From Aquila chrysaetos chrysaetos (taxonomy: Eukaryota; Chordata; Aves; Accipitriformes; Accipitridae): 64,000 nt of DNA. The stretch covers positions 85,392,623 to 85,456,622 of the forward strand of contig NC_044004.1 of the NCBI RefSeq assembly GCF_900496995.4. The letters are read 5' to 3'. The notes beneath the pieces are model-generated. The model was not told the DNA's origin. It did not search any database and saw nothing but the letters and a program-made list of their open reading frames with translations. Of this stretch, positions 44,896 through 64,000 are shown piece by piece. Within the stretch, counting starts at the first letter, position 1. Each line of letters starts with the position of its first letter. The position numbers and the translations under genes are program-made.

Positions 44896-44900
44896 CCTAG

Positions 44901-45344
44901 TGTCCTGGGTTCAGCTGGGATAGAGTTAATTTTTACAGGAACCTGGGAGGTGGGGGGGGCATAGCCGGGGCAGCTGACCTGAACTAGCCAAGGAGCTATT
45001 CCATACCATGTGACATCATACTCAGTATATACATGGGGAGTGGGCCGGGGGGAGGGGGCTCCTGCTCTCGACTTTCGGTGGGGGAAGTGGCGGAGCGTCG
45101 GGTCCCGGGTGGTGAGCAGTTGCACTGTGCATCACTCTTTTCTGTATACTCTTTCATTAGTACCGTCGTTGTTGTTGTAACTTTTTTTGCGTTGTCCCAG
45201 TAAACTGCCCTTATCCCAACCCTCGAGGTTCCAGTTTTTTTTCTTTTCTCTCCTCCGTCTCCCCCCTATCCCACCGGAGGGGGCGGGAGGAGTGAGCGAG
45301 CGGCTGCGTGGTCCTTTGTTACCGGCTGGGCTGAAACCACGACA
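44901..45344 (+). repeat. 5' LTR of the provirus
   Basis: The 444-bp LTR starts TGTCCTGGGTTCAGCTGGGA and ends AACCACGACA. A TATATA box lies at 45,026-45,031 and a polyadenylation-like AGTAAA at 45,199-45,204. It carries one extra GTT in a GTT run compared with the 3' LTR. Confidence 0.96.
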
Positions 45345-45352
45345 GTCCTTTT

Positions 45353-45370
45353 TGGCGCCCAACGTGGGGC
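45353..45370 (+). other. Primer binding site, tRNA-Lys(1,2) type
   Basis: TGGCGCCCAACGTGGGGC begins 8 bp after the LTR. This is the 18-nt complement of the 3' end of tRNA-Lys(1,2), the primer of foamy viruses and type-D retroviruses. Classical mammalian ERVL elements were named for a Leu primer, so the Lys type is notable. Confidence 0.9.
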
Positions 45371-45453
45371 ACGAAGGGTTGAGATAACGACAGATCTGGC
45401 CAGAGCGTGTTGAAACAAATTTGTCATACGCATTCCTTATATTAGATAAATAG

Positions 45454-46869
45454 ATGTTAGTCACAATGTTGATTAATTTGTTTACATGGTGGCGTTTTGT
45501 AGGTCCTTATATGCTCTATGTATTGCCTGTAGTTACGTTTCTCACCTCTGGGAGAGTGATTGGGATTACCATTTTGCTGTACTGGGCAATGTCGACTTGT
45601 GAAATGATTACATCACTGGTCATGAGGTTAAGCTGGTATCTGTATGAGGCAGTGATATCATTTCCATACTTTGGGCACCTTCTATCGGATTTTATTGGTA
45701 ATTACAGCCAATCCATGGGGGAGTTAGGGGGGGATACTTCCCCCCGTCCGTTCGCCTCCCTTTTCTCCTTCCGACTAATTACAACAGCTTTTGAGAACTT
45801 TGAATATCCTTGGGATGCACAAGCCACTGTGCTGTTAGTGCTATGCCTCCTGAATATGTTTCAGGTCTTGTTTAGGGCTACAAAAAGGCTCTTTAAGAGT
45901 ACCACCCAGAGATCTGCCCCAAAGCTGGATATTCATGGGTGGCACGGCATGTGGGAGGATATGGGCAGGTATCTAGAGAACTTCTCACCCCCAGTGGCTT
46001 GGAAGTTCACTCCCGAACAACTACAGAACCCTCATGAAGTGGTAGAATATTTGAAAGAAAAATGCTGTGACTATTCCAAAGACGTACAACTCGCTGCACT
46101 GTGCTGGGCCCTGGCCAGTATCTACCAAACACTGCTTGATATTAGGCAGCACCCTCAGGGAGAAAAGGGGGAAAAGATGGAAAACAGGGCAGCAGGCACC
46201 GTGGCTACCCCTACCCCGGCAACAGGCACCGTGGCTACCCCTACCCCGGCAACAGGCAGCGCGGCTACCCCAACCGCAGTGACGGATACTGCAGCTAAAC
46301 CAGAGAACCAACCTGTGCCAGTATCAGTCGCCCCTGTACAGAAAAAGAAACACACAAAGAAATCAGTTCGCTCAGTGAGAGATGAAGATGAACCAGGGTC
46401 ATCACGAGAACAGGAGGAAGAGGCAGAACCTGAAATAATCACCCGATCTCTATCCCTGAGTGAGTTGCGTGACATGCGAAAAGATTTTAGCCGCCACCCA
46501 GGTGAGCACATTGTTACCTGGCTGCTCCGATGCTGGGATAATGGGGCTAGTAGTGTGGAATTAGAGGGTAAGGAAGCCAAGCAGTTGGGATCTCTGTCTA
46601 GGGAAGGGGGCATCGACAAGGCGATCGGGAGAAAAACACAAGTCCTCAGCCTCTGGAGGCGACTTCTGTTAGGCGTAAAGGAAAGATACCCCTTCAAGGA
46701 TGAAGTTACATGTCACCAAGGCAAGTGGATATGTCTTCCTCCCCACCTGTACAGGCCCGCATCGCAGCTATTGGGAGTAAGCATTCCTCTGCCCAAGAGA
46801 GAGGAGAGAGAAAGTACACACGACGGGCTAACCTGTGGTTTTACCTGCGTGACCATGGAGAGGACATGA
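45454..46869 (+). CDS. gag-position ORF of the provirus, 471 codons
   Basis: The ORF opens at an ATG 84 bp after the primer binding site, which is the gag position. The first 145 residues are strikingly hydrophobic, with likely membrane segments at about 18-31, 35-57 and 124-140. A linker holds three 10-residue repeats of the GTVATPTPAT type (30-bp units at 46,195-46,284), followed by a Lys-rich and an acidic stretch. No zinc knuckle is seen. The frame overlaps a second frame, one base back, from 46,704 to 46,869; that frame looks more protein-like. Either an indel disrupts gag here, or the element shifts by -1. I see no clear slippery heptamer in the overlap, so an indel is the simpler reading. 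Confidence 0.75.
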   Translation: MLVTMLINLFTWWRFVGPYMLYVLPVVTFLTSGRVIGITILLYWAMSTCEMITSLVMRLSWYLYEAVISFPYFGHLLSDFIGNYSQSMGELGGDTSPRPFASLFSFRLITTAFENFEYPWDAQATVLLVLCLLNMFQVLFRATKRLFKSTTQRSAPKLDIHGWHGMWEDMGRYLENFSPPVAWKFTPEQLQNPHEVVEYLKEKCCDYSKDVQLAALCWALASIYQTLLDIRQHPQGEKGEKMENRAAGTVATPTPATGTVATPTPATGSAATPTAVTDTAAKPENQPVPVSVAPVQKKKHTKKSVRSVRDEDEPGSSREQEEEAEPEIITRSLSLSELRDMRKDFSRHPGEHIVTWLLRCWDNGASSVELEGKEAKQLGSLSREGGIDKAIGRKTQVLSLWRRLLLGVKERYPFKDEVTCHQGKWICLPPHLYRPASQLLGVSIPLPKREERESTHDGLTCGFTCVTMERT

Positions 46870-47093
46870 GGAAGTGGGATGGAAAACCTACCTCAGTCCT
46901 GGATGCACGGGTACGGGAGTTGCGAGAAAAAGCAACCAGGAAAGAGGATTCTTCTTGGAAAACTGCTGCTCCAGTTTCCTGTGAGGAGTCCCCCAGATGC
47001 AGTAGATGGGCTGATCACATTTCTGATCCTCTTGAAGGGACTTCTGATTCACGTGTGCGAAAAGTGAGTAACGAATATTCTAACCAGGATTAG
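46704..47093 (+). pseudogene. Continuation of gag in the -1 frame, ending at TAG
   Basis: This frame opens after a TGA at 46,701 and runs to a TAG at 47,091-47,093. It encodes a charged, helix-prone stretch (around LWFYLRDHGEDMRKWD) that looks like the gag C-terminal region. It is in the same frame as the downstream protease-pol, separated only by the TAG. That layout recalls stop-codon read-through in gammaretroviruses, but the TAG may be a simple mutation. No zinc-finger CCHC motif is visible. Confidence 0.55.
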
Positions 47094-48316
47094 AGGGGCC
47101 CTGCCTCCAGCCAGGTGGAGGAGAGGGACAACCGAGTCTACTGGACAGTGTGGATTCGATGGCCTGGCACATCAGACCCACAGGAATATAAGGCTCTAGT
47201 AGACACTGGTGCACAATGCACCCTAATGCCATCAAGTTATAAAGGGGCAGAACCCATCTGTATCTCTGGTGTGACAGGGGGATCCCAAGAGCTAACCGTA
47301 TTAGAAGCTGAAATGAGTCTAACCGGGAATGACTGGCATAAACACCCCATTGCAACTGGCCCAGAGGCCCCATGCATCCTTGGTATAGATTATCTCAGGA
47401 GGGGATATTTCAAGAACCCAAAAGGGTACCGTTGGGCTTTTGGTATAGCTGCATTGGAGACGGAGGAGACTGAACAGCTGTCTACCCTGCCTGGTCTCTC
47501 TCAAGACCCTTCGGTTGTGGGGTTGCTGAAGGTTGAAGAACAACAGGTGCCAATTGCTACCACGACGGTGCACCGGCGGCAATATCGCACCAACCGAGAT
47601 TCCCTGATCCCCATCCATAAGCTGATTTGCCAATTGGAGAGTCAAGGAGTGATCAGCAAGACTCGCTCACCCTTTAATAGTCCCATATGGCCCGTACGGA
47701 AATCTAATGGGGAATGGAGACTAACAGTAGATTATCGTGGGCTGAATGAAGTCACGCCCCCGCTGAGCGCTGCTGTGCCAGATATGTTAGAGCTTCAATA
47801 TGAACTGGAATCAAAGGCAGCTAAGTGGTATGCCACAATTGACATTGCTAATGCATTTTTTTCCATCCCTTTGGCAGCGGAGTGCAGGCCACAGTTTGCC
47901 TTTACTTGGAGGGGTGTCCAGTACACCTGGAATCGACTGCCCCAGGGGTGGAAACACAGCCCCACTATTTGCCATGGACTGATCCAGGCTGCACTGGAAA
48001 AAGGTGAAGCTCCAGAGCACCTGCAATACATTGATGACATCATCGTATGGGGCAACACGGCAGAAGAAGTTTTTGAGAAAGGGAAGAAAATAATCCAAAT
48101 CCTTTTGAAGGCTGGTTTTGCCATAAAAGAAAGTAAGGTCAAGGGACCTGCACAGGAGATCCAGTTCTTAGGAGTAAAATGGCAAGACGGGCGTCGTCAG
48201 ATCCCTATGGATGTGATCAACAAAATAGCAGCTATGTCCCCACCAACTAATAAAAAGGAAACACAAGCTTTCTTAGGTGTTGTGGGCTTTTGGAGAATGC
48301 ATATTCCAAATTACAG
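47094..48316 (+). pseudogene. pol 5' part: protease and reverse transcriptase, cut by an inserted LTR
   Basis: The frame is open from the gag stop. The aspartic protease motif is LVDTGAQ (DTG at 47,202-47,210). The reverse transcriptase follows with SPIWPVRKSNGEWR, LPQGWKHSP and the catalytic YIDD at 48,027-48,038, then an FLGVKWQ thumb region. In this pol it is cut at 48,316 by the antisense LTR. The inserted LTR plus duplicated target is 584 bp (two bases more than a multiple of three), and the downstream pol frame is displaced by exactly that amount. The reading frame was therefore open across this point before insertion. Confidence 0.9.
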
Positions 48317-48895
48317 TGTCGTGGTTTAACCCCAGCCAGCAACTAAGCCCCACGGAGCCGCTCACTCACTCCCCCCCCACCCAGTGGGATGGGGGAGAAA
48401 ATCGGGAAAAAGAAGCAAAACCCACGGGTTGAGATAAGAACAGTTTAATAGAACAGAAAAGAAGAAACGGATAATGATAATGATAACACTAATAAAATGA
48501 CAACAGCAATAATGAAAGGATTGGAATGTACAAATGATGCGCAGTGCAATCGCTCACCACCCGCCGACCGGCACCCAGCTAGTCCCCGAGCGGCGATTCC
48601 CCGCCCCCACTTCCCAGTTCCTATACTAGATGGGACGTCATATGGTATGGAATACCCCGTTGGCCAGTTTGGGTCAGGTGCCCTGGCTGTGTCCTGTGCC
48701 AACTTCTTGTGCCCCTCCAGCTTTCTCGCCGGCTGGGCATGAGAAGCTGAAAAATCCTTGACATTAGTCTAAACACTACTAGCAGCAACTGAAAACATCA
48801 GTGTTATCAACATTCTTCTCATACTGAACTCAAAACATAGCACTGTACCAGCTACTAGGAAGACAGTTAACTCTATCCCAGCTGAAACTAGGACA
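48317..48895 (-). mobile_element. Solo LTR nested in pol, antisense, TSD TACAG
   Basis: A 579-bp LTR lies on the minus strand. Its + strand ends read TGTCGTGGTTTAACCCCAGC and AGCTGAAACTAGGACA. It is flanked by TACAG at 48,312-48,316 and 48,896-48,900. It is the same longer LTR type as the solo copy at 30,196 and clearly distinct from the host provirus LTR, though the ends match. It must be younger than the provirus it interrupts. Confidence 0.95.
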
Positions 48896-48900
48896 TACAG

Positions 48901-50863
48901 TCAAATTGTAAGTCCTCTCTACCAAGTTACCCGGAAGAAGAATGATTTTAAATGGGGGCCTGAGCAACGACAAGCTTTTGAACAAATTAAGCGGGAGATT
49001 GTTCATGCAGTAGCTCTTGGGCCAGTCCGGGCAGGACAAGATGTTATAAATGTGCTCTACACTGCAGCTGGGGAGAATGGCCCTACCTGGAGCCTCTGGC
49101 AGAAAGCACCTGGGGAGACCCGAGGTCGACCCCTGGGGTTTTGGAGTCGGGGATACAGAGGATCCGAGGCTCATTATACTCCAACTGAAAAAGAGATATT
49201 GGCAGCATATGAAGGAGTTCGAGCCGCCTCAGAAGTGGTTGGTACTGAAACACAGCTCCTTTTAGCACCCCTACTGCCAGTGCTGGGCTGGATGTTCAAA
49301 GGGAAGGTCTCCTCTACACATCACGCGACTGATGCCACGTGGAGTAAGTGGGCCGCACTGATCACACAACGGGCTCGCATAGGAAACCCCAGTCGCCCAG
49401 GAATTGTGGAAGTGATCATGGACTGGCCAGAAGGCAAAAATTTTGGAATGTCGCCAGAGGAGGAGGTGACACGGGCTGAAGAGGCCCCGCTGTATAATAA
49501 ACTGCCAGAAAATGAGAGGCAATATGCTCTGTTCACTGATGGGTCCTGTCGCATTGTGGGAAAACATCGGAGGTGGAAGGCTGCTGTATGGAGTCCTACA
49601 CGACTAGTCGCAGAAACTGCTGAAGGAGAAGGTGAATCGAGTCAGTTTGCAGAGGTGAAAGCCATCCAGCTAGCGTTAGACATTGCTGAAAGAGAGAAAT
49701 GGCCAGTGCTCTATCTCTATACCGACTCATGGATGGTGGCAAATGCCCTATGGGGGTGGCTACAGCAATGGAAGAAGAGCAATTGGCAGCGCAGAGGTAA
49801 ACTCATCTGGGCTGCCGCACTGTGGCAAGATATTGCTGTTCGGATAGAGAAGCTAGTGGTAAAAGTACGCCACGTAGATGCTCATGTACCCAAGAGTCGG
49901 GCCACTGAAGAACATCAAAACAACCAGCAGGCAGATCAGGCCGCCAAGATTGAAGTGTCTCAGGTGGACCTGGATTGGCAACGTAGGGGTGAGTTATTTA
50001 TGGCTCAGTGGGCCCATGATACCTCGGGCCATCAGGGAAGAGATGCAACATATAGGTGGGCTCGCGATCGAGGGGTGGACTTAACCATGGACACTATCGC
50101 ACAGGTTATCCATGAATGTGAAACATGTGCTGCAATTAAGCAAGCCAAGCGACTGAAACCCCTGTCGTATGGAGGGCGATGGCTGAAATATAAACAGTGG
50201 GAGGCCTGGCAGATTGACTATATCACACTCCCACGAACCCGCCAAGGCAAGTGCCATGTGCTTACAATGGTGGAAGCAACCACTGGATGGCTGGAAACAT
50301 ATCCTGTGTCCCACGCCACTGCCCAGAACACTATCCTGGGCCTTGAAGAGAAAGTCTTATGGCAACACGGTACCCCAGAAAGAATCGAGTCAGACAACGG
50401 GACTCACTTCCGAAACAACCTCGTAGACACCTGGGCCAAAGAACATGGCATTGAGTGGGTATATCACATTCCTTATCACGCACCAGCCTCCGGAAAAATC
50501 GAACGGTACAATGGACTGCTGAAAACTACATTGAGAGCAATGGGGGGTGGAACTTTCAAACATTGGGATACACATTTAACAAAAGCCACCTGGTTAGTTA
50601 ATACTAGAGGATCCACCAATCGGGCGGGCCCCGCCCAACCAAGACTTCCACATACTGTAGAAGGGGATAAAGTTCCTGTAGTGCGCATGAGGAGTATGTT
50701 AGGAGAGACAGTCTGGGTTAGTCCTCCCTCACGCAGAGACAAACCCATCCAAGGGGTGGTTTTTGCTCAGGGACCTGGGTACACCTGGTGGGTGATGCAG
50801 AAGGATGGGGAAGTTCGATGTGTACCTCAGGGAGATTTGATTTTGGGAGAGAATAGCCAGTGA
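48901..50863 (+). pseudogene. pol 3' part: RT connection, RNase H, integrase
   Basis: The frame is open from 48,902 to a TGA ending at 50,863. RNase H shows FTDGS (Asp at 49,538) and YTDSW (Asp at 49,724). Integrase has an HHCC finger (first His at 50,015, CETC at 50,117-50,128) and a D,D-35-E core: Asp at 50,216, Asp in SDNGTH at 50,393, Glu in KIERYNG at 50,501. All catalytic residues are present. Cut off from its start by the LTR at 48,317-48,895, it no longer forms one protein with RT. No dUTPase and no env follow. Confidence 0.92.
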
Positions 50864-51389
50864 ACTAGGCTGTAGGATATTTAACTGCTAAATAACCTGC
50901 CAATGTATGTCATTGTATCTATAGTGTCTATATGCCATATCAAGGGTATTACTGTAAGAATTACCCAAATGACTGAAGAATGGACTTTGAAACTGAGCCA
51001 AGAACAACAGTGATAGAACTTGAACTGGCGCCCAGCAATTTCCTCAAGATCAACCTCTTCGACCTGCAGACCAAGGGTGTGGGTTGCATCAAATGTACCA
51101 GCCAGAAGTTCCAGAGACAGCATACAACAACCCAACACCTCACACCATCTCTCTTATCCTGAAGAAGTGTTACAACAGATGGAGCCTCAAAGTCATGGAC
51201 TAAATAAAATTGATGGACACATTGGAGGGATAACCCATTGACTAAGGGAATACTATTTGTATGTGTGTGTGTGTGGGGGGGGTCCATATACATATATATC
51301 TATATATAAGACAAGGAAAGTGGTAGCGGTTGATTGGAAAATGTAAGATCTGGGCATGATGTAAATAGTATAGAATAAGGGGTGGATAA
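50864..51389 (+). other. Provirus 3' non-coding region with candidate polypurine tract
   Basis: About 526 bp lie between the pol stop and the 3' LTR. There is no env-like frame. A short TG repeat and G run lie near 51,259-51,282. A modest purine tract (AATAAGGGGTGGATAA) abuts the LTR and is the likely plus-strand primer. Confidence 0.7.
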
Positions 51390-51830
51390 TGTCCTGGGTT
51401 CAGCTGGGATAGAGTTAATTTTTACAGGAACCTGGGAGGTGGGGGGGGCATAGCCCGGGCAGCTGACCTGAACTAGCCAAGGAGCTATTCCATACCATGT
51501 GACATAATGCTCAGTATATACATGGGGAGTGGGCCGGGGGGAGGGGGCTCCTGCTCTCGACTTTCGGTGGGGGAAGTGGCGGAGCGTCGGGTCCCGGGTG
51601 GTGAGCAGTTGCACTGTGCATCACTCTTTTCTGTATACTCTTTCATTAGTACCGTCGTTGTTGTAACTTTTTTTGCGTTGTCCCAGTAAACTGCCCTTAT
51701 CCCAACCCTCGAGGTTCCAGTTTTTTTTCTTTTCTCTCCTCCGTCTCCCCCCTATCCCACCGGAGGGGGCGGGAGGAGTGAGCGAGCGGCTGCGTGGTCC
51801 TTTGTTACCGGCTGGGCTGAAACCACCACA
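51390..51830 (+). repeat. 3' LTR of the provirus
   Basis: 441 bp matching the 5' LTR except for four substitutions (including CCACCACA for CCACGACA at the very end) and a 3-bp deletion in a GTT run. It is followed by the CCTAG target duplication. Confidence 0.96.
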
Positions 51831-51835
51831 CCTAG

Positions 51836-53149
51836 AGTGTGGAATTTTGACTTCAGTTGGAAAGAGATTTTCCAAAATGGAAGTCTTTCTCACTCAAAGA
51901 AAGTTTGTTGTATGAACTTCCCATCAGAGTGGATCTTCAGGGGTGATTGCCTTGACAGTAGAAGTCATAGGCAACAAGACTTCTCACTCTCTTTTAAAAA
52001 AAAAAAACCAAACCGAAGTCAGTTTCCTTCCAAAGACCCAAGCCCAGAGCACATCTTCCTAAAGTTGATGGCATCGCAGGTCTTTGGGTTCTCAGTTGTA
52101 ACAGTTGAGATATCATAAAAATATGTTACTCTGCATGCTTTACTACAGCCAAAAGCATTAGGAAATCCGCCTGTCCTTTTTGGTAGTCTGAGGTATTGCA
52201 GCACTGGGGATTTTTTTGTTTTCTAAAAGTAAAACTATATGAAGGATCTCTTATCTCACTGATTTTTCTATCATAAATGAAACTTTAAAAAAAAAAGTTA
52301 AAATTGTATTATTTACAAACTGACTTGCATTGTTTAAACTGTAACTGCCAAATAGCTGTAGCATATAATTTATTAGGTTTAACTAAGCAGTTAGGTATTT
52401 TTCTAAATGTTTAAGAAGAGAGGCAACTGAATGTTATGGGGTTGTTTTCGTGATGTTGTGACAGAGTGCTCTGAAGTATTTTATTGCTGTCTGGCTTTCC
52501 ATGGTGCTTTTCCCTGGCAGTTCAGTAGCATCTCTGTTGGGCAGTGCAGCTGGCCAGGTGTCTGTCCTCATGGAGTAACACTCACAACCCCTGCCCCACC
52601 CCCCCCATGTCACATTGTAACTGTGGATTTTGTAGATAAACAATTTAATGGTATCAATTCACAGCTATGCAAGTTAAGTTAATGCAAAGGAAAATCAATT
52701 TCTTTGATAGTATAAATAGTTTTATTGCATGTATATAACCATTTGCAGACTTCTTAGTATAAAGTGAATTATTGAGATATATTCTTTTTTTTTGATTTTG
52801 CTGTTTGAAGTTTTCCAGTTCACTTTCAGCTGTATTGACCAAGCAAGCAAGATGCAAAGCAGCAGCAGCAACGCAAGGGCTGTAGCTGTTGCGGTGGATC
52901 CGTAAGCGTAGATTATGATTGTGTACGACCTCGTCCCGCAGCCTCCCGGGGTTCTCTCCCTGCAGCAGTGCTGTAAGGAAGGGAGGAGACGTTTTTCAAC
53001 CCCGGCAAGAGTGTTTACTTGTGTGCTAAGAAGGTGTTCAAAATGGTATCAGTTAGCCTAAATGCTGATTTTAAGAGTTCAAATCACTCATTTAAAGGAG
53101 GTGGTGTATTTCGAGCTGACCTGTTTACCTGGAATCCTCCTTTAGCTCA
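51836..53149. other. AT-rich flank of the provirus, no gene recognised
   Basis: Mostly AT-rich sequence without recognisable coding content. One short segment with good splice signals (52,819-52,901) is listed separately. The sequence immediately left of the provirus is the other half of the same pre-insertion locus. Confidence 0.5.
52819..52901 (+). other. Candidate 83-nt exon with internal ATG
   Basis: The segment is preceded by a GTTTGAAGTTTTCCAG acceptor and followed by a GTAAGC donor. One frame is open throughout and contains an ATG starting MQSSSSNARAVAVAVDP. I cannot assign it to a protein family. If real, it and 42,350-42,428 could be exons of one + strand gene with the provirus in its intron. 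This is weak evidence. Confidence 0.2.
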
Positions 53150-53347
53150 GTGACTCTTCTTGTGCAACCCCAGCCTCCGCTGGCAGGGCGGTATGAGAAG
53201 CTGGAAGGTCCTTGACTTAGTATAAACCCTGCTTGGCAACAACTAAAGCGTCGGTGTGTTGTCAACGTTATTCTCGTCCTAAAACCAAAATGGCCCTGTA
53301 CCAGCTACTCGGAAGAAAATTAACTTTATTCCAGCCAAAACCAGGAC
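53150..53347 (-). mobile_element. LTR fragment, antisense, ERVL-like family
   Basis: The right part resembles the 5' half of the nested LTR read on the minus strand: TATGAGAAGCTGGAAGGTCC through TGTACCAGCTACTCGGAAG to a CCAGGACA end. It is clearly more diverged, and the other LTR half is missing. No target duplication was found, so it is an older truncated copy. Confidence 0.8.
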
Positions 53348-54019
53348 AACCCCAACCCCCCTGATTCTGGGTCTGCAACAGGGGAAAAAAAAACAAACGA
53401 ATTTGGGACTCCTGGGAAAGCCAAATCCGCCTGGATCTGTGCAGCTGGAAAGGAAAAATCCCACCCCGTTTTCACGCGCAAAACCACAACCAAAAGATCA
53501 CCCCTTTTTATGTTGTGGAAAAGCACTGAAACACACCCCAAACTGAGTATTTTGAAAAAGCAAAAAACTCGCCAGTTTGGGGAAGATTGGGGGCGAAGCA
53601 CAGGCAGTTTGAGGGGCATTGCTGGGGGTCCTCCCAGTGTGGATGATCTGGTGTGGATTCTCTGTTGCGGGTTATCCCAGGTGAGTTACCTGCTGTGGAT
53701 CATCCCGGGTGGACTCCCTGGGGTAGGTCATCCCCGCCCGTGTCCCCCCATGCACCTTTGTACCCTCACCTACCCTCCCCCCGTGTGTGTTTCTCCCCCA
53801 TGTGCCCCCCGTTGCTCCGGCCCGCCCCCTTCACCCACGCGAGTTTTTAACCTGCGCGAGTTGTTCCCCCCCCCGCATGCCCTGCTCTCCTCTCTCCTGC
53901 GCTGCCCCCCCCCCGGCCCTTTCCCTCCTCCATATTCCACACCACCCCCCCTGCCCCATGATCCATCAGGCTTCAGACCCCTGGCATGCTGCCTGCACCC
54001 CATTCTCTGTCATTTTTTT
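53348..54019. other. C-rich sequence between two LTR fragments
   Basis: No coding match. Several C runs and a loose repeat of the TGTGGATNATCCNGGTG type lie around 53,640-53,730. It may be internal or LTR sequence of an unrecognised retroelement, since LTR fragments lie on both sides. Confidence 0.4.
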
Positions 54020-54199
54020 CTTCTTTTCCTTACAAGTTGTTATTGTTCTTGTTTCTTTTTAATGATTAAACTGGTTTTGTGTCCAGCCACGAGTTTTCTC
54101 ACTTTCGCCCTTCCAATTGTCTCCCCGTCCCACTGGCGGGGGGGGAGCGACTGAGCGGTCGCGTGGGGCTTCGTTGCCGGCTGGCGTTAGACCACGACA
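54020..54199 (+). mobile_element. LTR fragment, 3' end, ERVL-like family
   Basis: The final 180 bp match the 3' part of this LTR type: an ATTAAAC polyadenylation region, CACGAGTTTTCTCACTTTCG, a GGGGGGGAGCGACTGAGCGG stretch, and an AGACCACGACA end. The 5' part was not found. It has the opposite orientation to the fragment at 53,150. Confidence 0.8.
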
Positions 54200-55289
54200 C
54201 GAGGTGAGTCGCAAGCCCTGCCTGGCTAATGCTGGAGGCTCTCTGCATTCCTCCTGCCGTCTTGACGGGCCGTCCTTGTTCTTCATTGCCGCTTTATAGC
54301 GAGCGCCTCTTGCTCCGTAAGCAGCAGTACTCGGGCCGTGCAGGTGCTGCACGTTGCAGACAGCAAAGGGCAATTGTGACGCTTGCTGGGGGGAGCGGCA
54401 AGGGGTGCGGAGCCACGCTCCTGTAGGGAGCAAAGATGGAACCTCGAGGGCTCTGCGGTCATCGGCCGAGAACGTCTACTATCCCGACGCGCCGCTTTGC
54501 TTTCCCTGCTTCACGTCTAATTACTTTGCACGCCGGAGGGCGGGGCGGTAAGTAACACCGTGCAGCGTCTCTTCGATAAGAGACAAGCCCTGCACAAGAA
54601 GCCTTGCGTGCGTGCAGGATTAGGAGAGCAGAGTTGTGATAGCACAGAGGTGAGGAAAGGTGCGCCCCACCCCAACAGAGCCCCAGGATCGCCAGGGTAT
54701 CATCGCTCGCTTGCAGGTGGGCCGCTCGCATCCGGTCCGCTGGGATGCGCCGTTTCCTGCTGAACAGAGCTGCCCCCCTGGCACGAGGCAGCTTTGGGTC
54801 TCTTGTGGCCTGCCTTCAGGCTGTCACCTGAACCAGGCGTTTGTTTTTTTTTTTTTTTTTTTTTTTTTTTAATCTCTCGCCAGCATCTGCTGACTGGCTG
54901 CTGTCACTCCCAGAACCCTGATGCTGCATGCAGATGGATACAGCAGTCCCTGGGGCTTGGTCCAGGGGAACCCCCCGTCCCCCCTGCCCTTGCAGGTTCC
55001 CTGTGCTGCTTCTCCTGTCTAGATAATGGGGTGGGGGGGCAGGGACAGAAGCAACCGCCCGAATTGTCTGTTCTTTGTGCTTGACTGCTGTAACCGCTCC
55101 AGCCCCTCGGGTGCTTTTTGGAAGGGAGGCAATGAAGGTGACTGCCCGGGCTGCGAGTGGGGAAAGGGCAGGGCAATGTAAGCCCCGTGCCCCCAGTAAG
55201 TAGTTACCGCCTGTGGCTGGTCTCTACTGGGTTGAGCTGTCAGTCATCTCTCCTGCAGCTGATGCTCAGAAGAGGATCGTTGCGGGGAT
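54200..55289. other. GC-rising flank, nothing recognised
   Basis: No coding match. A T27 run lies at 54,844-54,870. The sequence becomes GC-rich toward the tandem array. Confidence 0.5.
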
Positions 55290-56130
55290 GCGGATGCTGC
55301 TGCGTGGCGACCGAAGGAGGGAACTGCGTTCTGGAGGCGCACATGCGCGGAGGCGTGCGTGGCTGGGCCCCCGCTGTTGCCTGGCAAGCGGGGCGCAGTA
55401 CGGCAGCTGGGGAGGAGCGCATGCGCGGTAGCGCCTTAAACGGCTCTCGCCGCTGTCGCCTGGCAACCACGACGCCGCACAGCTGCTCGGGAGCCGCGCA
55501 TGCGCGGTGGCGCTTTTTGCCGCCCTCCTGCTGTTGCCTGGCAACCGCGACGCCGTGCAAGCTGCTCGGGAGCCGCGCAAGCGTGGTGGCGGCGCGTTTC
55601 GCCAGCGCTCTCTTCCGCCACCTATTGACCAAAGTTCGGTACTGCAGCTGGGAGCCGCGCATGCGCGCTGGCGCGCCGCGCCAAGCCCTCGCAGCTGCCA
55701 CCCTGCGACCAATGCTCGGTACTGCAGGACGGAGGCTGCGAGTGCGCGGGGCTGCCCCTGTCCTGCACGTGCCGTCCGACGGTAACGGCAATGCGGCACC
55801 GGCGGGAGGTGCCGCCGCGCTCGTTGCTTCCTCCCGGTAAGGAAACGCCGCTGCCGCCCCAGGCGCGCGGTGTCGGCGGGCGCTCGGCGCGCAAAGCGCG
55901 GAACCGCAGCGCCGGGGCCGCCCCTGGGCACGCGCGTCCCGCCGTCCTCTCGCTGCTGCTGCCGCCTCGTGGCCGAAGCGCGGAACTGCAGCGCCGGCAC
56001 GGCCCGGGTGCGCAGCAGCAGCGCCGCCGCCGCCTCCGCTGCTGCCGCCTTGTGGCCAAAGCGCGGTACTGCAGCCCGGCGGTCGCGCGCCGGCTCCCGC
56101 CCCTCCGGCGCATGCGCGGTCCCCGGGAGC
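55290..56130. repeat. Imperfect tandem array of ~80-bp units with NRF1-, RFX- and CTCF-like motifs
   Basis: About ten diverged units share a fixed order: an X-box-like or GCCNCC block, then CGGTACTGCAGC, then GCGCATGCGC. GCGCATGCGC or a close variant recurs near 55,337, then at 55,417, 55,496, 55,575, 55,657 and 55,737, a 79-82 bp spacing. CGGTACTGCAG-like cores recur at 55,634, 55,714, 55,896, 55,978 and 56,061. X-box-like palindromes start at 55,376, 55,455 and 55,533; the last is a perfect GTTGCCTGGCAAC. Later units replace it with GCCGCCTTGTGGCC, which resembles half of a CTCF site. A minisatellite origin with promoter function is inferred. Confidence 0.85.
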
Positions 56131-57300
56131 AGCGTGGCGGCGCGCAGGGCGCGGGTCTCGGCGGCAGCGGGCGAGCGCCGGGACCGCGGGTGAGGCGAGC
56201 GATCCCCTCCGGCGGGGGCGAGGGCGAGGGCGGGGGCGGGGGGTGCCTCCTGCCCGCTGGCCGCCCGGGGCTGCCGGGCCGGGAAGCTGCGAAGCGGCCG
56301 CCGCGGCAGGCTCCCGGTCCGCCGGAGGCGAGCCGGGCCAGGGCAGCGCCGGGGAGTTCCCCGAGAGCCGCCGGTAGAAGGGAAGAGGGGACGGAGGCGC
56401 GCACCCCCCAGGCGCGGCCAGCGGGCGCCTCCCCGAGTCGCCAGAGCTCCCCCGGCGCCTCCCCCGGCTCCGCTCGGGCCGTGCGGCTGCCCCCAGCTCC
56501 AGCCCCTCCCCTGAAGCCTGTGCTGTGGCCGCAGGCAGCCCCCGAGCCCTGTCGTGAGGGCAGCGAGCTGGCCCTCAGTGCATCTCCAGAAGCCTCTGCA
56601 GAAGGAGGGGCTCTGGCCAGGGGCGATCTGCGGTAATGAGTCGATGCTTCTCTTTCGCAGAGGCTGCACTGAGGGCATGGTTGTCTTTTCCTCCCTTGGG
56701 GATGCCGTTGACTGCAGCAGCCTCAGGCTTGCGTGGGCTGTCTCTGCCTGGCCTCCCTCTCCGCGCGGCGCGGGCGCGGGAGCACAAAGGGACAGGCGGG
56801 GCACTTACCGGCTGTGGGCAGGAGCTGCTGCGGCTGAAGCTGGCGAGGCCAGAGAAAGGTAGAGAAGAAGGAACGGAAGGCCGGCCGGCCGGCAGCTGCC
56901 TCCCGCTGCAGGCAAGAGAGAGCCTGCCTCTCCGCGTGTGGAAGGATCCCTCCTCGTAGTCCGCAGCAGGTCAGACTGCCGAGGTGCGCTGCAGGGTCCG
57001 TATGCAGCACCGACGGTGCCGTACGGCCACGTAGCGTGCGAGCGAGCGAGGCTCTGTGCCTAGGAAGCCTCGTCTTGCAAGACCTGTGAGACGCGTGTTC
57101 TCCTAGGGGGAGGAGGACAGCCGTGCAGCCGGAGTTACAGCAGAGGAGGGGAGCGGGAGAGGAGCAGAAAGAAGCGTCTGAACTGGCAAATTCTCCTGGC
57201 AGCGCCAAGAACAAGAGCTGTGGTGAGCCTCGGGGCCCTGTCTCTCTCCCCTCTTCTGCGTTCCGGTCCCTCCCTGGCCCTGCCCGGCCCCCTCTCTTTC
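56131..57300. promoter_or_regulatory. CpG island, probable promoter region of an unidentified gene
   Basis: Continuous CpG-rich sequence follows the tandem array. Long open frames on both strands reflect low stop-codon frequency in GC-rich DNA. A candidate spliced segment lies at 57,107-57,222. Neither strand shows a recognisable protein. Confidence 0.45.
57107..57222 (+). other. Candidate 116-nt exon downstream of CpG island
   Basis: The acceptor GTGTTCTCCTAG precedes it and the donor GTGAGC follows. One frame is open across it, hydrophilic and Glu/Ser-rich (around EEQKEASELANSPGSAKNKS), which looks more protein-like than its GC-rich surroundings. I cannot assign a family. Confidence 0.25.
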
Positions 57301-57315
57301 CCACACCGCTGCCTC

Positions 57316-57336
57316 TTTTTTTTTTTTTTTTTTTTT
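57316..57336. repeat. Poly(T) run, T21
   Basis: Twenty-one consecutive Ts within a pyrimidine-rich stretch. Confidence 0.95.
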
Positions 57337-59399
57337 CCCCTCCTTTCCTCCCTTGTACCTCTGATACTGAAAAGCCGGTCGAAGAAACTCTCTAAGGCTC
57401 GTTTTGGAGTTTTAGAAAGCAGGCATTCTTCACTGCAGCGCTGGATGCACGGGGGATAGTTCCACCTAGCGCGCGTGCCACAGGTTTAGCACACACAGGT
57501 TCTATAGAAGAACTAATTGCATATTAATCAGATTAGTATACGTATACATAAAAACGATGGCAACCGATTATCACAGTACTGCCTACATCCAATCATGCGC
57601 AATGAAGGATCCGTTTGAGACGAAGGGCTGCTTTTGCGACCGCCGACCCATTTGAAGTTCCTGCTGGCTGTCCTCAAAGTCTTTATTCTTGTCCTTGTTC
57701 TTTGATCTTGAAGCTTAACGCAGTTTCAATCGCACGTGGTCAGTTTCAGCATTGTTCTCATCTAGTGCACAGGAACATCTAGTCCTAAGAGCAAAGAACT
57801 GCAAAACTTGTGAGTACCTACCTCTGCTAGTTAACTGCTTGGCTATACTTTTGTCTACTGTTTCAATCATCGTGTTAGTGTAAGATTTCTAATAATTATT
57901 TACCAAATCTCACTTTTACAGTCACCTAGCAGCAAACCAGTTTCCACGGCTGGTACAAAACATTAAAACCATCCAAATATTTAGACGTGCCATACAGAAT
58001 GTATGGACATATGCTATCAGAGGTGTCCCAGGGGCAGGGGGAGCGTCGGGGGGGGGGGGGGGGGCCCCGAGCCCCGGAGCGGACTCGCTGGCAGGACTCG
58101 TTAGGCGCGCGACTGGCTGAACGAACGCTGGCTGTCCGTCCCCGTTGCGCTCCGGGCTGCGTTTGCGCTCCCTTTGCACGGGGCGAGGGGCCGTGAGGGA
58201 GCCCAGGGGAGGAGGAGGTGAGGCGCTGGGGGGGTCGGGCCATGCCCCCCCTGTTCCTGCTGGGCTCCAGCTGTTGCAAATATTCTGGTAAAGAAATCAA
58301 AATTTAATCACGTAGAAGAGTTAGGTTTGATTAAGAAGTAAAATTGTGAAGCATAACGTATAGGATTGTTAAGTGTGAAATATAGTAACCTGATTCGTGT
58401 CAATATAAAACAACGATAGGGCCGCATGGTGAATGTGACCCTTTCTGCATATGTAATCTTTAACCGTTTTGCTTGATCTTGTATAACCGTAGGCCTAAGG
58501 GAAGTAGGAGAGTATGTATATAGTTCTTGCTTCCTGCAAAAGCCATATAACAGTAGGGAATTACAAAAGTTGGAAACGAAATAAAATCAGACATCAAGTA
58601 GAAATCGAAAAATACTTCACACGGTCTCTCGGAAGTAGCGGAATCCTATAGTTGCAAAGGTTTAAAGAAAAAGGGGGGGGGGATTGATATAGAGAACAAA
58701 CTGCTTATTGCTTAATGATTGTCTCTCTGTAACTTTACATACCCAGGACTGGTGTTTGTCAAGGATTAAGCCTGTCAGAGACTGGTACTTAGGAATGATG
58801 AGCAAGAAGGAACCAAGAGCGATCACAAGACTTAATTAAGTGTTCGATGAATTTACGATCTTGTTAAGAAAACGCAAGTAGAGGCCTTGCTTGAATAGAT
58901 AAGGCCGGAAAAGATAAGAACTCCTGCCTTTTGTTCCCATCCTTGTAGATAATTTAGCTTAAACTAACCTACGGTGCTATACCACTAATGAGAACTTAGA
59001 TAATAAGAACACTAACAAGCACTAAGGTATCAAAACATGTAAAGGACCATACTGCGCAGAATCACCTGAGGAGGGTCAAATAGCGGACAAGTGAGGAACA
59101 CTATGGAAGACCACCAGAGGACTCCTGAAGACCACCAGAGACCTTCCATGTGCCTGCGTAAAGGACATTTACATATGTTAATAGTTTCCCGGGAAAACTA
59201 ATGAATATGTATAACATTTCTCAGGAATCTAGTGAATATGTATGTAGAACCTGTACTTAACCTGCACAATTAGACCTGACGGGGTGTGCCTTGGTAGAGC
59301 AGAGGCTCCCAGTGCACCCAGCGCTGTTTGCTTGCCTCTATGCATATAATAAATTGTAAACTTTAATTAGAATCCTGTTTTGGACGTGATCATTTTTCA
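57337..59399. other. Mixed sequence, possible old LTR material
   Basis: No gene recognised. G17 lies at 58,048-58,064 in a GC-rich patch. The stretch from about 59,030 to 59,400 resembles a retroviral U3-R-U5 region: CCCAGCGCTG followed by AATAAA at 59,348-59,353. It may be an older LTR, but I cannot define its ends. Confidence 0.4.
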
Positions 59400-59938
59400 C
59401 GTTAAGTCTGAAACGTAGCCGTAGAAACTTTAGGAACTGCGTTATGTGTGACTATCGGAACCTTAATATTGTTAAAGTTGGAAATAGCGAACCCTAGAAC
59501 CCTCCCCAGGAAGTTACTGGTTTTCCTATGTTCTGTTTCAAGAAACTAAGGAAACCGTCATGGACACCAGTTTGCTGCTTGGAGACCCCCTTACCCTTCC
59601 CATCTCGATTTGAGTATCGAAGATTCCAGTCAGTAGAGCTAAGTGTAACTGACCAATGATTGTTTTTGAATAAGAAGATTGATAAGGTTACGTAATCGAA
59701 GGACCAGTCCTTATAAAGGTTAAATTTAAGAACGAGCACAGTATGCATTTTTATGGAAAGAGCTTATGTAACAATGAGCTGACAGGAAAAGTCTGTAAAA
59801 ACTGATGGATTTTGATACTAGGCGGGACACGCCTCTGGAGGAGCGATCCCCCGTGTCCCCAGCGCTGCGATAAACGAAGTGCCCGCTTCTTAACTTCACG
59901 TTGGCGTTAAGGAGTTTTATTCCGGATTTCGGTAACGG
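59400..59938 (+). repeat. Candidate 5' LTR of the class-I element (start uncertain)
   Basis: Sequence before the primer binding site includes CCCAGCGCTGCGATAAACGA, a typical R/U5-like stretch with a polyadenylation-like ATAAA, and ends near GGTAACG where a CA end is expected. The left end is not marked by a clear TG with duplication, so the boundary is approximate. Confidence 0.5.
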
Positions 59939-59941
59939 TTT

Positions 59942-59959
59942 TGGCGACCCGGATGGGAC
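59942..59959 (+). other. Candidate primer binding site of the class-I element
   Basis: TGGCGACCCGGATGGGAC begins with the TGG expected opposite a tRNA CCA end, a few bases after the putative LTR end. I cannot assign the tRNA confidently. Confidence 0.55.
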
Positions 59960-60308
59960 CTTGCGAGTGAGACTGGACGAGATCGAGTGTTGATCGAACT
60001 CCGGCCGGCACCGAGGTATTCTCGGGGAGAACCGTCACCCTCGACTCGCAAAGCTCCTCGCAGCGTTCCCTGGAAAAAAGGTGAGGCGCTGCTTCTTTGC
60101 AGTTTGTTTGGAAAGCCTGCCCCTGAGGCGCGGCGAAAGCTTCGCAGGGTTGGGGGCTCGGAGGGTACCCGTTTGCACTGGAAGCCTAGGCGTCCGCCCG
60201 TAAGTCATAAGCGAAAGTTATTGCTGGGTTGGACTTTGTGTATTGTTTGGGACAACTGTCATTTGCATTTGTTTGGTATTATTTGGTATTTGAACGTATA
60301 TAAGTATC

Positions 60309-60518
60309 ATGGCATTAGCAAAGTTGTTTAAGAATGAGAGCGCAGGAAATATAACTGCTGATGAAAAGGTACCAAAAACGTCACCGTTGGGATGTTTATT
60401 GGCACGCTGGGGTGAATTGCGGGAAAAATGGGAAACAGACAGACCTTTGAGTTATAATGCTATATCGCAATTACTGTTGTTTTGTAGGAGAGAGAGTAAA
60501 TGGAATGAAGTGCCATAG
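60309..60518 (+). pseudogene. gag N-terminal remnant, 69 codons
   Basis: An ATG opens a frame of a matrix-like N-terminus (TSPLGCLLARWGELRE). It stops at 60,518, and protease-like sequence starts only about 60 bp later. Most of gag (the rest of matrix, capsid and nucleocapsid) is therefore deleted. Confidence 0.7.
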
Positions 60519-60578
60519 GTCGATTTGTTCTTTTTAAGTGAACGTATCTGACGGGGACCGGAGGGGAGCCTCCCAGCA

Positions 60579-60850
60579 GAACCTCTGGTTACAGCTAAAC
60601 TGGGAGAACAGAAAATTGAATTTGAATTGACACTAGAGTCACCTTTTCGGTTTTAGATACCTTAGAGGGAGAGTTGAGTTTTGAAGAAATGGGTGGTGTT
60701 GGTGCAACAAGTGAACGGGAAACTAGACCCTTCTTTAAATCTTGAACAATGAAATTAGGAAAGCAACGGGTCACTCGGCAGTTTTTGTACGTGCCAAATT
60801 CTCCTAAGCTCCTGTTAAGGAGAGATCTATTGGAGAACTTAAGAGGCAGA
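60579..60850 (+). pseudogene. Protease remnant with lost active site
   Basis: Recognisable as retroviral protease by the EPLVTAKLGEQKIEFEL start and by FLYVPNSPKLLLRRDLL in another frame. Where the catalytic Asp-Thr-Gly is expected after FEL, the frame reads TLES and soon meets a stop. Frameshifts split the rest. Confidence 0.7.
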
Positions 60851-60969
60851 AATTAAATTAAAAAATGGAGAGGTTAAAATTTTAATTCCAGAAACTAAGC
60901 GTATCGAAGCAGTGGCTTTGTTGTTACAGGATGGTTACCGAAAGCCGAAGATTATACCGGTCAAAGTAT

Positions 60970-61784
60970 AACGCTGTAATTCCAATCGTCTGGCCTGGGA
61001 AGTTCCCGGTAAGTCCAAAAAGCAGAACCTGTGAGAATTGATTTAAAGCCAGGATCGAATCCGGTAAGAATTCAACAATACCCCCTAAAACCGGAAAGTC
61101 GGAAAGGGTTAGTATTGATAAGACAAAAATTTTTTAAGATGTAAATTGTTAATAGAACGTGAATCCAAATATAACACCCCGACCTTGCCTGTTAAAAGGC
61201 TAACGAAAAAGATTATAGATTAGTTCCTCAGAGCAATAAATCAAATAGTACAAGGTATTCATCCGGTAGTAGCAAATCCTTATACTTTGTTAACAACCCT
61301 GACAGAGAAACGAGAACGGTTCACAGCGTTAGGCTGAAAAGATGCCTTTTTCTGTATTCCCTTGGATCCCAATAGTCAAGAGCTTTTTGCTTTTGAATGG
61401 GAAAAGCCTGAGACTGGGAGAAAAACACACTATACGTGGACAGTCTTGCCTCAAGGCTTTAAGAATAGTCTTACCATTTTTGGAAATCCATTGGCACGAG
61501 AATGAGAGATTTGGAAGAAAGAAAATAATCAAGAAATCTTGTTGAAATATAGGGGTGGTCTGTTAATTGTAGCTGAGGTGGAAGAACAATGCACCAAGGT
61601 AACTATTAACTTTTTGAACTTGTTGGGAATCGGTGGATATCGAGTGTCAAAAGAAAAAAGCCGAAGAACCCAGAAAGAAGACACTTATTTGAGTTTTAAA
61701 GTCCTAAAAGGACAGAGACAATTAGGAGCTGAGAGAAAAGAGGCAATTTGTCGTCTCCCCGAACCTAAGACCAAAAAAAATTAA
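60970..61784 (+). pseudogene. Reverse transcriptase remnant, catalytic Asp pair lost
   Basis: Fragments of RT finger and palm are scattered over three frames with stops. In the last fragment (from 61,539) the position of the catalytic Y-x-D-D box reads YRGG, just before LLIVAEVEEQC. The enzyme could not polymerise DNA. Confidence 0.8.
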
Positions 61785-61884
61785 TGACGAGCCTTTCCGG
61801 GAACGGTTGAGTGGTGTCACCTGTAGATTATCAATTGCGGCTTGCTGGTCCGACCTTTATACGAGCAGCTGAAAACCTCAGGCA

Positions 61885-62998
61885 ATGGATTGGACTGATG
61901 CCGAGAAAGCCACTTTCAAAGAATCGAAACGGGCTGTAACGGGGGTGCCAGCCCTAGGCCTGCCAGATCTCACAAAGACATTTGAACTTTTTACTCGTGA
62001 AAGAAGAGGTATAGCTCTGGGTATCCCGGCCCAATATTTGGGGCCAAGTGGGCGAGCTGTGGCCTACTTCTCGAAGCGATGAGATCACGTGAGTCTGGGA
62101 TGCTCTGGTCGTCTGAGAGCCGTCGCTGCAACTGTGCGACTGATCCAGGAAGCTCGTAAGTTCACCTGAGGACAAAGGATTACTGTGTGTTTCCCATATG
62201 ATAGCTGTTGTGCTAAAACAGAAAGGGGGGCCTTGGTTATCCCCTAGCAGAATGCTGAAATACCAAGTGGTGTTGCCGGAACAAGATGACGTTTACTTAA
62301 AAACTCGTACCACCGTTAACCCTGTTGCGTTTTCAACAACCGATCGAGTTAAAGGAGAACTGGAACGCGACCGCTTGCAGACAATCGAAAGAGTTTACTC
62401 CTGCCGACCGGATCTCTGAGATGCGCCGCTAGAAGTAACAGATTGGGAACTATATACCGACGGAAGCGGTTTCATCTGTGAAGGAAAACGTTTATCGAGA
62501 TAGACAATAACTACCGAGGAGGTAATTGCGTTCCGAACTTTGCCTTCGATGATATCTGCCCAAAAGGCTGAATTGATAGCTCTCACTCGAGCTCTGGAAC
62601 TAAGTCAAGGAAAGCGAGTCAACGTTTGGACAGACTCAAAGGATGCTTTCGGAGTAGTACGTGCACACGGAGCGATACGGAGAGAAAGAGGACTGTTACC
62701 TGCACAAGGAGCCGCCATTCAGCATGCAGAGCAGATACTGAAATTGTTAGAAACCGTTCAAAAACCAGCAGCAGTCACGATAATGCGCTGTAAAGCACAT
62801 CAGTTGGGTAAGACTGTTCCTAACGCAGGTAACCGACTGGCCGATAAAGCTGCTCAAGAGGCTGCAGAAGAAGGCACCCTAGCACTAGTTCCAGAGAAAA
62901 GTATAAAATTGCCTAAAGAAACTCGAAATTATAACGAAAAAGATGAGGAATTAATTGTTAGATTGCAGGCTAACAAAATGAAACAGGACAGGCTGTAA
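61885..62998 (+). pseudogene. RT connection and RNase H remnant
   Basis: The connection domain (TFELFTRERRGIALGI, VAYFSKR) is followed by a diverged, stop-interrupted stretch. RNase H then shows YTDGSG at about 62,453, QKAELIAL, and VWTDSKDAFGVV in an open frame at 62,540-62,998, the longest intact piece of this element. The family's catalytic Asp, Glu and Asp positions are still recognisable, but stop codons separate them. Confidence 0.8.
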
Positions 62999-63960
62999 CA
63001 CCGACAGGTCAAATAATAGTCCCGCCCACAATAATAAGAGAAATTGCCCGAGCTGAACATAACAAAGTATATTGGGGAACAGAAGGTAAAACATGACAAA
63101 GATTGTTTAAACGATTATAAGCGGATGTGAAATTTACGTATAAAACGATCCCCAAATCAGTAATAAGATTATCTTTGGCATTATTAAATAAGGAAATTTT
63201 TTAGGGGAATATTAGCAAATCGATTTTATAGAATTGCCTCGAAAAGAAGGATATAGCCTAGTTTTAGTTGATATCTTCACTGGGTGGCCCGAGGCTTTCC
63301 CTTGTCGCACCAACAAAGCGAGAGAAGTAGTCAAAGTCTTGCTCAAAGAGGTAACACCAAAATATGGGGTGCCCGTAAGAATGTCATCTGACAATGGCCC
63401 TCATTTTATAGCAAAGATTATGAGACAAGTTGAGCAAAGTATTATCTAGAGATTGAGACTATCACACCCCATATAGACCACAAGCAAGCGGGGGGGGGGG
63501 GGGGGGGGGGGAGAATGAATGAACTATACCCTTAAGCGACAGGTGAGTTAAATTTGTCAGGAAACCTCACTCACATGGGTTAAAGCCTTACCGATGGCTC
63601 TATTAAGAATCAGAGTATAGCCAGAAGAGAAAGAAAATTTAAAGTCATTATGCAATGTTATATGAAAGACCGTATCAAGAGTCCTATGTTCTGAGTACCT
63701 TGAGTGCCTTTGGAGATATGTTTTTTAAAAGGTGTTATGATTTCTTTAAGCAATTCTTTCAAGAACTTTGTCGGTATGTCTCCGCAGCTGGACCCTTAGA
63801 ATTGGACGTAGCAGCGCATCCCTTCCGACCCGGAGATTGAATATATATAAAATCGCTGAGAAGCGGCAAGGACCGTATCGAGTCGTTTTAACAACACTTA
63901 TAGCAGGAAAGGTCTGGGAGAAGAACCTTGGCTTCATTATTCAAGAATAAAGAAAGCACC
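62999..63960 (+). pseudogene. Integrase remnant with G22 run at the catalytic Glu region
   Basis: The His-His part of the zinc finger survives near 63,057 (RAEHNKVYWGTEGK). The core (VDIFTGWPEAFPCRTNKARE and SSDNGPHF) lies in one frame at 63,234-63,449. Around the third catalytic residue the sequence is replaced by a G22 run at 63,490-63,511. A C-terminal GPYRVVLTT segment survives near 63,870. Several stops and shifts break the frame. Confidence 0.8.
63490..63511. repeat. Poly(G) run, G22
   Basis: Twenty-two consecutive Gs inside the integrase remnant. The exact length may be a sequencing estimate. Confidence 0.9.
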
Positions 63961-64000
63961 AACAGGAAAATTGGAAGTCTACAAGACCTGGGCCTGGGCC

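What the first reader, a model, noticed from the sequence alone, without database searches (positions are those of the whole stretch)
55290..56130. Tandem ~80-bp array carrying regularly spaced NRF1-, RFX- and CTCF-like sites
About ten diverged units repeat with an 79-82 bp step. GCGCATGCGC matches the NRF1 consensus, and GTTGCCTGGCAAC at 55,533 is a perfect RFX X-box palindrome. Later units show GCCGCC(T/C)(T/C)GTGGCC, close to part of a CTCF site. A promoter-like CpG island built from a minisatellite of factor-binding sites is unusual. It might act as a ciliary or NRF1-driven promoter, an insulator, or a germline-methylated satellite. The spacing and motifs are seen; the binding is inferred.
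Basis: partly seen in the sequence, partly recalled or inferred. Interest (0 to 1): 0.75.

Follow-up and report, generated by a model that had tools for sequence, protein, structure and literature searches.

The report
Bird chromosome-end NRF1-CTCF repeat island
A short tandem repeat that packs docking sites for three regulatory proteins sits near many chromosome ends of a bird and points outward, laid out much like the switch that starts telomere RNA in humans.

Summary
The array is real: about nine diverged units at 55,297-56,130, with 4 exact NRF1 palindromes and 3 X-boxes. The "partial CTCF" motif is a full two-part CTCF site (upstream TGCAGTNCC, 6 bp, core), present four times on one strand (one core decayed); 0 of 5,000 shuffles make one.

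The window is the last 64 kb of an 85.5-Mb contig. Of 35 places listed on 31 large contigs of the same genome (a lower bound), 31 lie within 60 kb of a contig end, on 26 of 62 ends; 23 of the 26 nearest copies point outward. In 16 of 16 copies holding both, the X-box/NRF1 minisatellite comes first and CTCF follows towards the array's 3' side; 32 composite CTCF sites lie on one strand, 0 on the other.

Human TERRA promoters have this plan (PMC6600276). Best reading: a bird subtelomeric promoter/insulator, probably for TERRA-like RNA. Position and anatomy are shown; binding, transcription and telomere adjacency are inferred, because no telomere repeats are assembled at contig ends.

The parts
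55297..56130 (+). tandem array, nine recognisable diverged units; + strand points to the contig end at 64,000
   Evidence: contig end
55373..55610 (+). three X-box + NRF1 units (u1-u3), starting 55,373, 55,452, 55,529
55376..55388 (.). X-box, 1 mismatch
55455..55467 (.). X-box, 1 mismatch
55533..55545 (.). X-box GTTGCCTGGCAAC, exact palindrome
55417..55426 (.). NRF1 palindrome, exact
55496..55505 (.). NRF1 palindrome, exact
55657..55666 (.). NRF1 palindrome, exact
56108..56117 (.). NRF1 palindrome, exact
55613..55646 (-). CTCF composite u4: core 55,613-55,631 (14.5 bits), 6 bp, upstream motif 55,638-55,646
55693..55726 (-). CTCF composite u5: core decayed (6.7 bits), upstream motif intact
55957..55990 (-). 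CTCF composite u7: core 15.6 bits, upstream motif TGCAGTTCC
56040..56073 (-). CTCF composite u8: core 17.4 bits, upstream motif TGCAGTACC
55161..57220. CpG island around the array (two adjoining)
56131..56300 (+). GC skew turns positive just after the last NRF1 site; possible start region of a transcript towards the end (inferred)
44717..64000 (+). block shared with other contig ends; joins unique BMP3-side DNA near 44,717 and runs to the contig end; interrupted by the provirus below
44901..51830 (+). young endogenous retrovirus inserted in the block (LTR-like repeats 98.2% alike; 5-bp duplication CCTAG at 44,896-44,900 and 51,831-51,835); not part of the array
58381..59400 (+). about 1 kb that looks like a solo LTR (absent from the C25 and C26 copies; at C6 followed by a primer-binding-site-like sequence); not part of the array
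   Evidence: limits approximate

Best explanation
This is one copy of a subtelomeric repeat family of this bird. Each typical copy is a CpG island in which a minisatellite of X-box plus NRF1 units is followed, on the outer side, by one to three two-part CTCF sites that all face the same way. Proposed working: NRF1 (and RFX) bound to the unmethylated repeat open a CpG-island promoter that fires towards the telomere and makes TERRA-like RNA; the CTCF sites, held by zinc fingers 9-11 on the upstream motif and with the N-terminal side facing the chromosome interior, stop cohesin, help keep the island open and insulate the end. Shown: sites, order, orientation, multiplicity, position near contig ends. 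Inferred: binding, transcription, telomere adjacency, TERRA.
For: Window = C1:85392623-85456622 and C1 is 85,456,622 long. 31 of 35 listed places on 31 large contigs lie within 60 kb of an end, a zone that is 0.3% of their length; 26 of 62 ends have at least one; 23 of the 26 nearest copies point outward (two-sided binomial P 9e-5); median distance 6.4 kb. 17 of 19 fetched copies carry at least one CTCF composite, 14 at least two; 32 on one strand, 0 on the other in 187,776 bases; X-boxes precede CTCF in 16 of 16 copies holding both, by 422-433 bp in 12 of them. In 188 distinct unit rows the NRF1 plus X-box columns are better conserved than the rest (0.923 against 0.803; only the true placement of 74 rotations reaches it). 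Composite 4 against 0 in 5,000 shuffles. A 5- or 6-bp gap is the known spacing of the CTCF ZF9-11 motif (PMC9004084 passages); that motif is needed for enhancer blocking at IL3 (PMC12885311 passages). Human TERRA promoters: 61-29-37 repeats in a CpG island, two putative NRF1 sites in each 29-bp repeat, CTCF about 300 bp downstream, transcription towards telomeres (PMC6600276 passages). GC skew goes from a mean of -0.10 (55,901-56,130; positive in 0 of 18 copies) to +0.20 (56,131-56,300; positive in 18 of 18). No ORF of 80 aa or more between about 56.1 and 58.4 kb is open in more than 10 of 16 other copies.
Against: No telomere repeats are assembled: six exact TTAGGG units occur at one internal site only and no two-unit run is in the 27 fetched loci, so the telomere is inferred. 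Three of 26 nearest copies point inward and 4 of 35 places lie far from ends. 36 of 62 large-contig ends had no listed copy, though only 40 of 78 candidates were scored. Two of 19 copies have no composite by my rule. Between 18 copies, composites u4, u7, u8 have fewer substitutions than the rest of the array (32 of 1,779 against 195 of 6,449) but not fewer gaps, and 34-bp windows rank them unremarkably (29-79%). X-box columns alone are not notable: 22 of 74 rotations reach them. GC skew is negative at 56,461-56,600 in 18 of 18 copies. No ChIP, RNA or methylation data.
Confidence: 0.55

Rival explanations
1. Neutral by-product: NRF1 and CTCF sites open in the male germ line break and are repaired as tandem duplications, so the array grows without being selected, and subtelomeric exchange copies it from end to end.
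For: In human spermatogonia short insertions at NRF1, CTCF and PRDM9 sites are often tandem duplications of the motif, and the authors say clusters may be neutral (PMC8559717, abstract and passages). Number of X-box units within 1 mismatch differs between copies, 0 to 12.
Against: Motif columns are better conserved than the rest of the unit. In a star-tree simulation from the consensus, three of four cores staying at 14.5 bits or more together with four exact upstream motifs has P about 0.005 at 10% and 0.0003 or less at 15% divergence per unit; that motif was picked after seeing it, so this overstates. The paper's mechanism concerns 5-20 bp insertions, not 79-bp units.
Confidence: 0.2
2. Promoter of a subtelomeric non-coding or coding RNA that has nothing to do with telomere repeats.
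For: Promoter-like CpG island with NRF1, X-box and G-rich sequence; telomere adjacency unproven.
Against: Downstream ORFs not kept between copies; Pfam found only retroviral domains in 52-64 kb.
Confidence: 0.13
3. Assembly-end artefact: a long dispersed repeat breaks contigs, so its copies collect at contig ends without being subtelomeric.
For: No assembled telomeres; a few internal copies exist (C24 at 7.73 and 7.77 Mb, C9 at 27.48 Mb); proviruses lie beside many copies.
Against: The 31 large contigs hold about 1.22 of 1.234 Gb, so they look like chromosomes; contigs such as C2, C6, C10, C16 and C19 have outward copies at both ends; the left limit of the block differs here from the other ends, unlike a transposon with fixed ends.
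Confidence: 0.09
4. Locus-specific insulator or promoter for BMP3, as a single-copy reading would have it.
For: Two plus-strand CTCF cores at 37,612 and 37,649 face the minus-strand array, a convergent pair.
Against: The array belongs to a multi-copy end block whose junction with BMP3-side DNA is at about 44,717.
Confidence: 0.03

Closest known systems
Human TERRA promoters of the 61-29-37 class (PMC6600276; passages seen)
   Same: Subtelomeric CpG island shared by many but not all ends (about twenty in human); tandem minisatellite with NRF1 sites in the unit; CTCF site a few hundred bp further towards the telomere; outward direction.
   Different: Unit of about 79 bp instead of 61, 29 and 37 bp; X-box in the unit; tandem two-part CTCF sites; TERRA transcription not shown here; no sequence comparison with the human repeats was made.
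Tandem CTCF insulators, e.g. protocadherin and beta-globin (PMC7087399; passages seen)
   Same: Several CTCF sites in one orientation, of the kind shown to insulate.
   Different: Here the sites lie within one minisatellite of units of about 80 bp at contig ends; occupancy unknown.
IL3 insulator CTCF site with upstream motif (PMC12885311; abstract and passages seen)
   Same: Core plus upstream CTGCAGTTCC-like motif.
   Different: One or two sites near a gene, not a repeat family.
DXZ4 macrosatellite (PMC3491370, PMC3218863; search listing only)
   Same: Tandem repeat whose units bind CTCF.
   Different: 3-kb units at one X-linked place; not spread over chromosome ends.

Membership tests
TERRA promoter (human 61-29-37 type) | position near chromosome ends, on several chromosomes | tested here: met
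   31 of 35 listed places within 60 kb of a large-contig end, 26 of 62 ends; contig ends stand for chromosome ends by inference
TERRA promoter (human 61-29-37 type) | TTAGGG tract on the outer side | tested here: inconclusive
   no telomere repeats assembled at contig ends
TERRA promoter (human 61-29-37 type) | CpG island with a tandem minisatellite holding NRF1 sites | tested here: met
   exact NRF1 palindrome in 123 of 183 distinct unit rows that cover it
TERRA promoter (human 61-29-37 type) | CTCF site on the telomere side of the repeat | tested here: met
   CTCF after the last X-box in 16 of 16 copies holding both; 3 of 26 ends have the nearest copy reversed
TERRA promoter (human 61-29-37 type) | transcription towards the telomere into UUAGGG repeats | not testable with these tools
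   no RNA data
TERRA promoter (human 61-29-37 type) | sequence kinship with the human repeats | not tested
   human subtelomeres not held
CTCF insulator with upstream motif | core plus upstream motif at 5 or 6 bp | tested here: met
   spacing from PMC9004084
CTCF insulator with upstream motif | CTCF occupancy and enhancer blocking | not testable with these tools
   no ChIP or reporter data
RFX X-box promoter | X-box palindrome | tested here: met
   within 1 mismatch of GTTGCCTRGCAAC in 147 of 166 unit rows that cover it; position 8 is A in 90 and G in 88 of 188 rows
RFX X-box promoter | RFX binding and ciliary or germ-line target gene | not testable with these tools
   no ChIP data; no target gene seen
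ordinary dispersed transposon | copies with fixed ends scattered through chromosomes | tested here: not met
   4 of 35 listed places far from ends; in 8 of 8 copies viewed the block continues past the point where it stops here

The most novel reading that the evidence does not exclude
Birds and humans have independently built telomere-RNA promoters to one plan: an NRF1 minisatellite in an unmethylated CpG island, CTCF on the telomere side, facing out. In this bird an RFX X-box ties the chromosome end to the germ-line or ciliary programme, and the array marks the edge of a domain that stays unmethylated in the germ line. The CpG ratio steps from 0.34-0.45 (52-54 kb) to 0.68-0.99 (54-64 kb) just inside the array, a step that provirus base composition may explain in part.
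Probability: 0.3. Interest if true: 0.9.

Novelty: new variant of a known kind. Interest (0 to 1): 0.78.

Why it matters
If it drives TERRA, it gives a bird telomere-transcription promoter with a different unit but the same parts as in humans, which would argue that NRF1 plus CTCF is a general solution at vertebrate chromosome ends. It also offers some twenty naturally varied copies (0 to 12 X-box units in the 19 seen) on which to ask what repeat number does. As far as I recall birds lack PRDM9, so the array also offers a case for testing whether NRF1/CTCF site duplication needs it. For assemblers, it marks which contig ends probably lie close to telomeres.

Tried and rejected
Rejected: a PRKG2 promoter (PRKG2 not in the window, best E 0.55; its kinase exons are at C1:64.30 Mb). 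A protein-coding gene on the island. Rfam families and tRNAs in the window: 0 and 0. A germline-methylated satellite. Selection between copies seen at single composites: inconclusive. A search for the other side of the supposed rearrangement breakpoint with DNA of L016 was asked and never answered. (RFX, CTCF and repeat terms together) listed 0 papers.

Full report
What is there. The region 55,297-56,130 is a tandem array of about nine diverged units. Units u1-u3 (55,373, 55,452, 55,529) hold an X-box; u4, u5, u7 and u8 hold, at the matching place, a CTCF site instead. No unit holds both: the three X-box units score at most 1.2 bits for CTCF and the four CTCF units are 5-6 mismatches from the X-box. 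NRF1 palindromes are exact in u1, u2, u4 and u8.

The CTCF sites are complete. Scanning with the MA0139.1 matrix (recalled) gives 17.4, 15.6 and 14.5 bits on the minus strand at 56,040, 55,957 and 55,613, and a decayed 6.7 at 55,693. Each is preceded by TGCAGTNCC with exactly 6 bp between. The literature gives 5 or 6 bp between the upstream motif read by zinc fingers 9-11 and the core (PMC9004084 passages), and ties the upstream motif to enhancer blocking (PMC12885311 passages). In 5,000 dinucleotide shuffles no composite arose; three cores at 14 bits or more arose in 1. Tandem copies are not independent, so this shows that the motif is real, not that it arose four times.

It is a chromosome-end family. 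The genome search was unanswered eight times and then placed the window at the very end of C1. One search listed 93 matches and one search listed 50 rows, with 40 of 78-79 candidates scored in each, so counts are lower bounds. I merged neighbouring rows (11 rows dropped, among them one separate place on small contig C92), added one place, and got 40 places: 35 on 31 contigs of 4.2 Mb or more, 5 on small contigs that I left out. Of the 35, 31 are within 60 kb of an end, 27 of these pointing outward; by end, 26 of 62 ends have a copy and 23 of 26 nearest copies point outward. Exceptions: C26 left, C4 right and C22 right point inward; C24 (7.73 and 7.77 Mb), C9 (27.48 Mb) and C26 (169 kb from its right end) are not near ends.

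Anatomy of the copies. In 19 copies (18 fetched loci plus the window) I found 0-12 X-boxes within one mismatch, 1-13 exact NRF1 palindromes, and at least one CTCF core of 12 bits or more in each. By the stricter rule (core at 12 bits or more, upstream motif within one mismatch at 5 or 6 bp) 17 of 19 have one and 14 have two or more; 32 lie on the array's minus strand and 0 on its plus strand; C21 left and C18 left have none. X-boxes come first and CTCF follows in 16 of 16 copies holding both, at 422-433 bp in 12 and 79-157 bp in 4. Over 188 distinct unit rows, found by similarity to u1-u3, NRF1 and X-box columns together are the best conserved of 74 rotations (0.923 against 0.803); NRF1 alone is matched by 3 rotations, X-box alone by 22. 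One X-box position is A in 90 and G in 88 rows; either purine leaves the X-box intact as I recall its consensus.

Surroundings. The block shared with other ends starts here near 44,717, where BMP3-side DNA stops; in 8 of 8 other copies viewed it goes on further inward. It is cut by a young endogenous retrovirus (about 44,901-51,830, LTR-like repeats 98.2% alike), holds what looks like a solo LTR at about 58,381-59,400, and crosses a broken pol near 61.2-63.4 kb. BMP3 exons lie at about 4.7, 16.4-17.3 and 24.1 kb. PRKG2, its neighbour in humans (recalled), has its kinase exons on the same contig 21 Mb away, on the + strand. The simplest account is an inversion with one break between BMP3 and PRKG2 and one in the end block; I could not test the other junction.

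How it may work. CpG observed/expected of 1.11 suggests an island unmethylated in the germ line. GC skew turns positive just past the last NRF1 site in 18 of 18 copies, though it is negative again at 56,461-56,600 in 18 of 18; a G-quadruplex-like motif is on the + strand in 8 of 18 and on the - strand in 0 of 18. ORFs downstream are not kept. This fits an outward, non-coding transcript. CTCF with its core on the minus strand has its N-terminal side towards the chromosome interior, the side reported to face the enhancer in stronger insulation (PMC12885311), so it would stop cohesin that comes from inside.

Comparison with the known. Human TERRA promoters on about twenty subtelomeres are CpG islands with 61-29-37 repeats, putative NRF1 sites in each 29-bp unit and CTCF about 300 bp downstream; NRF1 and CTCF are described as positive regulators (PMC6600276 passages). 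The bird array has these parts in the same order, with another unit length and an added X-box. It works like one by layout; membership is not shown, because transcription and telomere adjacency are not. How such an array could grow is suggested by tandem duplications at NRF1 and CTCF sites in human spermatogonia (PMC8559717, abstract and passages), which also supports the neutral rival. CTCF clusters at domain borders are known to gain new sites next to old ones (PMC6945661, abstract).

Confidence. That it is a multi-copy end-associated family with this site order: about 0.93. That it acts as a TERRA-like promoter with an insulator: about 0.55.

Noticed in passing
window 37,341-38,300: A second CpG island in unique DNA carries two strong plus-strand CTCF cores (37,612, 20.2 bits; 37,649, 16.8 bits) without the upstream motif at 5 or 6 bp; they face the array.
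   Followed up: partly
window 39,000-64,000: CpG observed/expected is 0.17-0.41 at 39-45 kb and 0.68-0.99 at 54-64 kb, the latter at only 41-49% GC from 57 kb on and although a broken pol lies there: perhaps a germline-unmethylated chromosome end.
   Followed up: partly
window about 44,717; C1:64.30 Mb: BMP3 and PRKG2 are 21 Mb apart on one contig, which suggests an inversion whose outer break lies in the subtelomeric block.
   Followed up: partly
window 44,901-51,830: Young endogenous retrovirus (LTR-like repeats 98.2% alike, 5-bp target duplication) with an inverted LTR-like copy at 48,317-48,895 inside it; related LTR-like stretches at 30,196-30,759 and 53,156-53,348.
   Followed up: partly
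window 58,381-59,400: What looks like a solo LTR here is an empty site at C25 and C26, and at C6 left is followed by a primer-binding-site-like sequence; end blocks of this genome catch proviruses often.
   Followed up: partly
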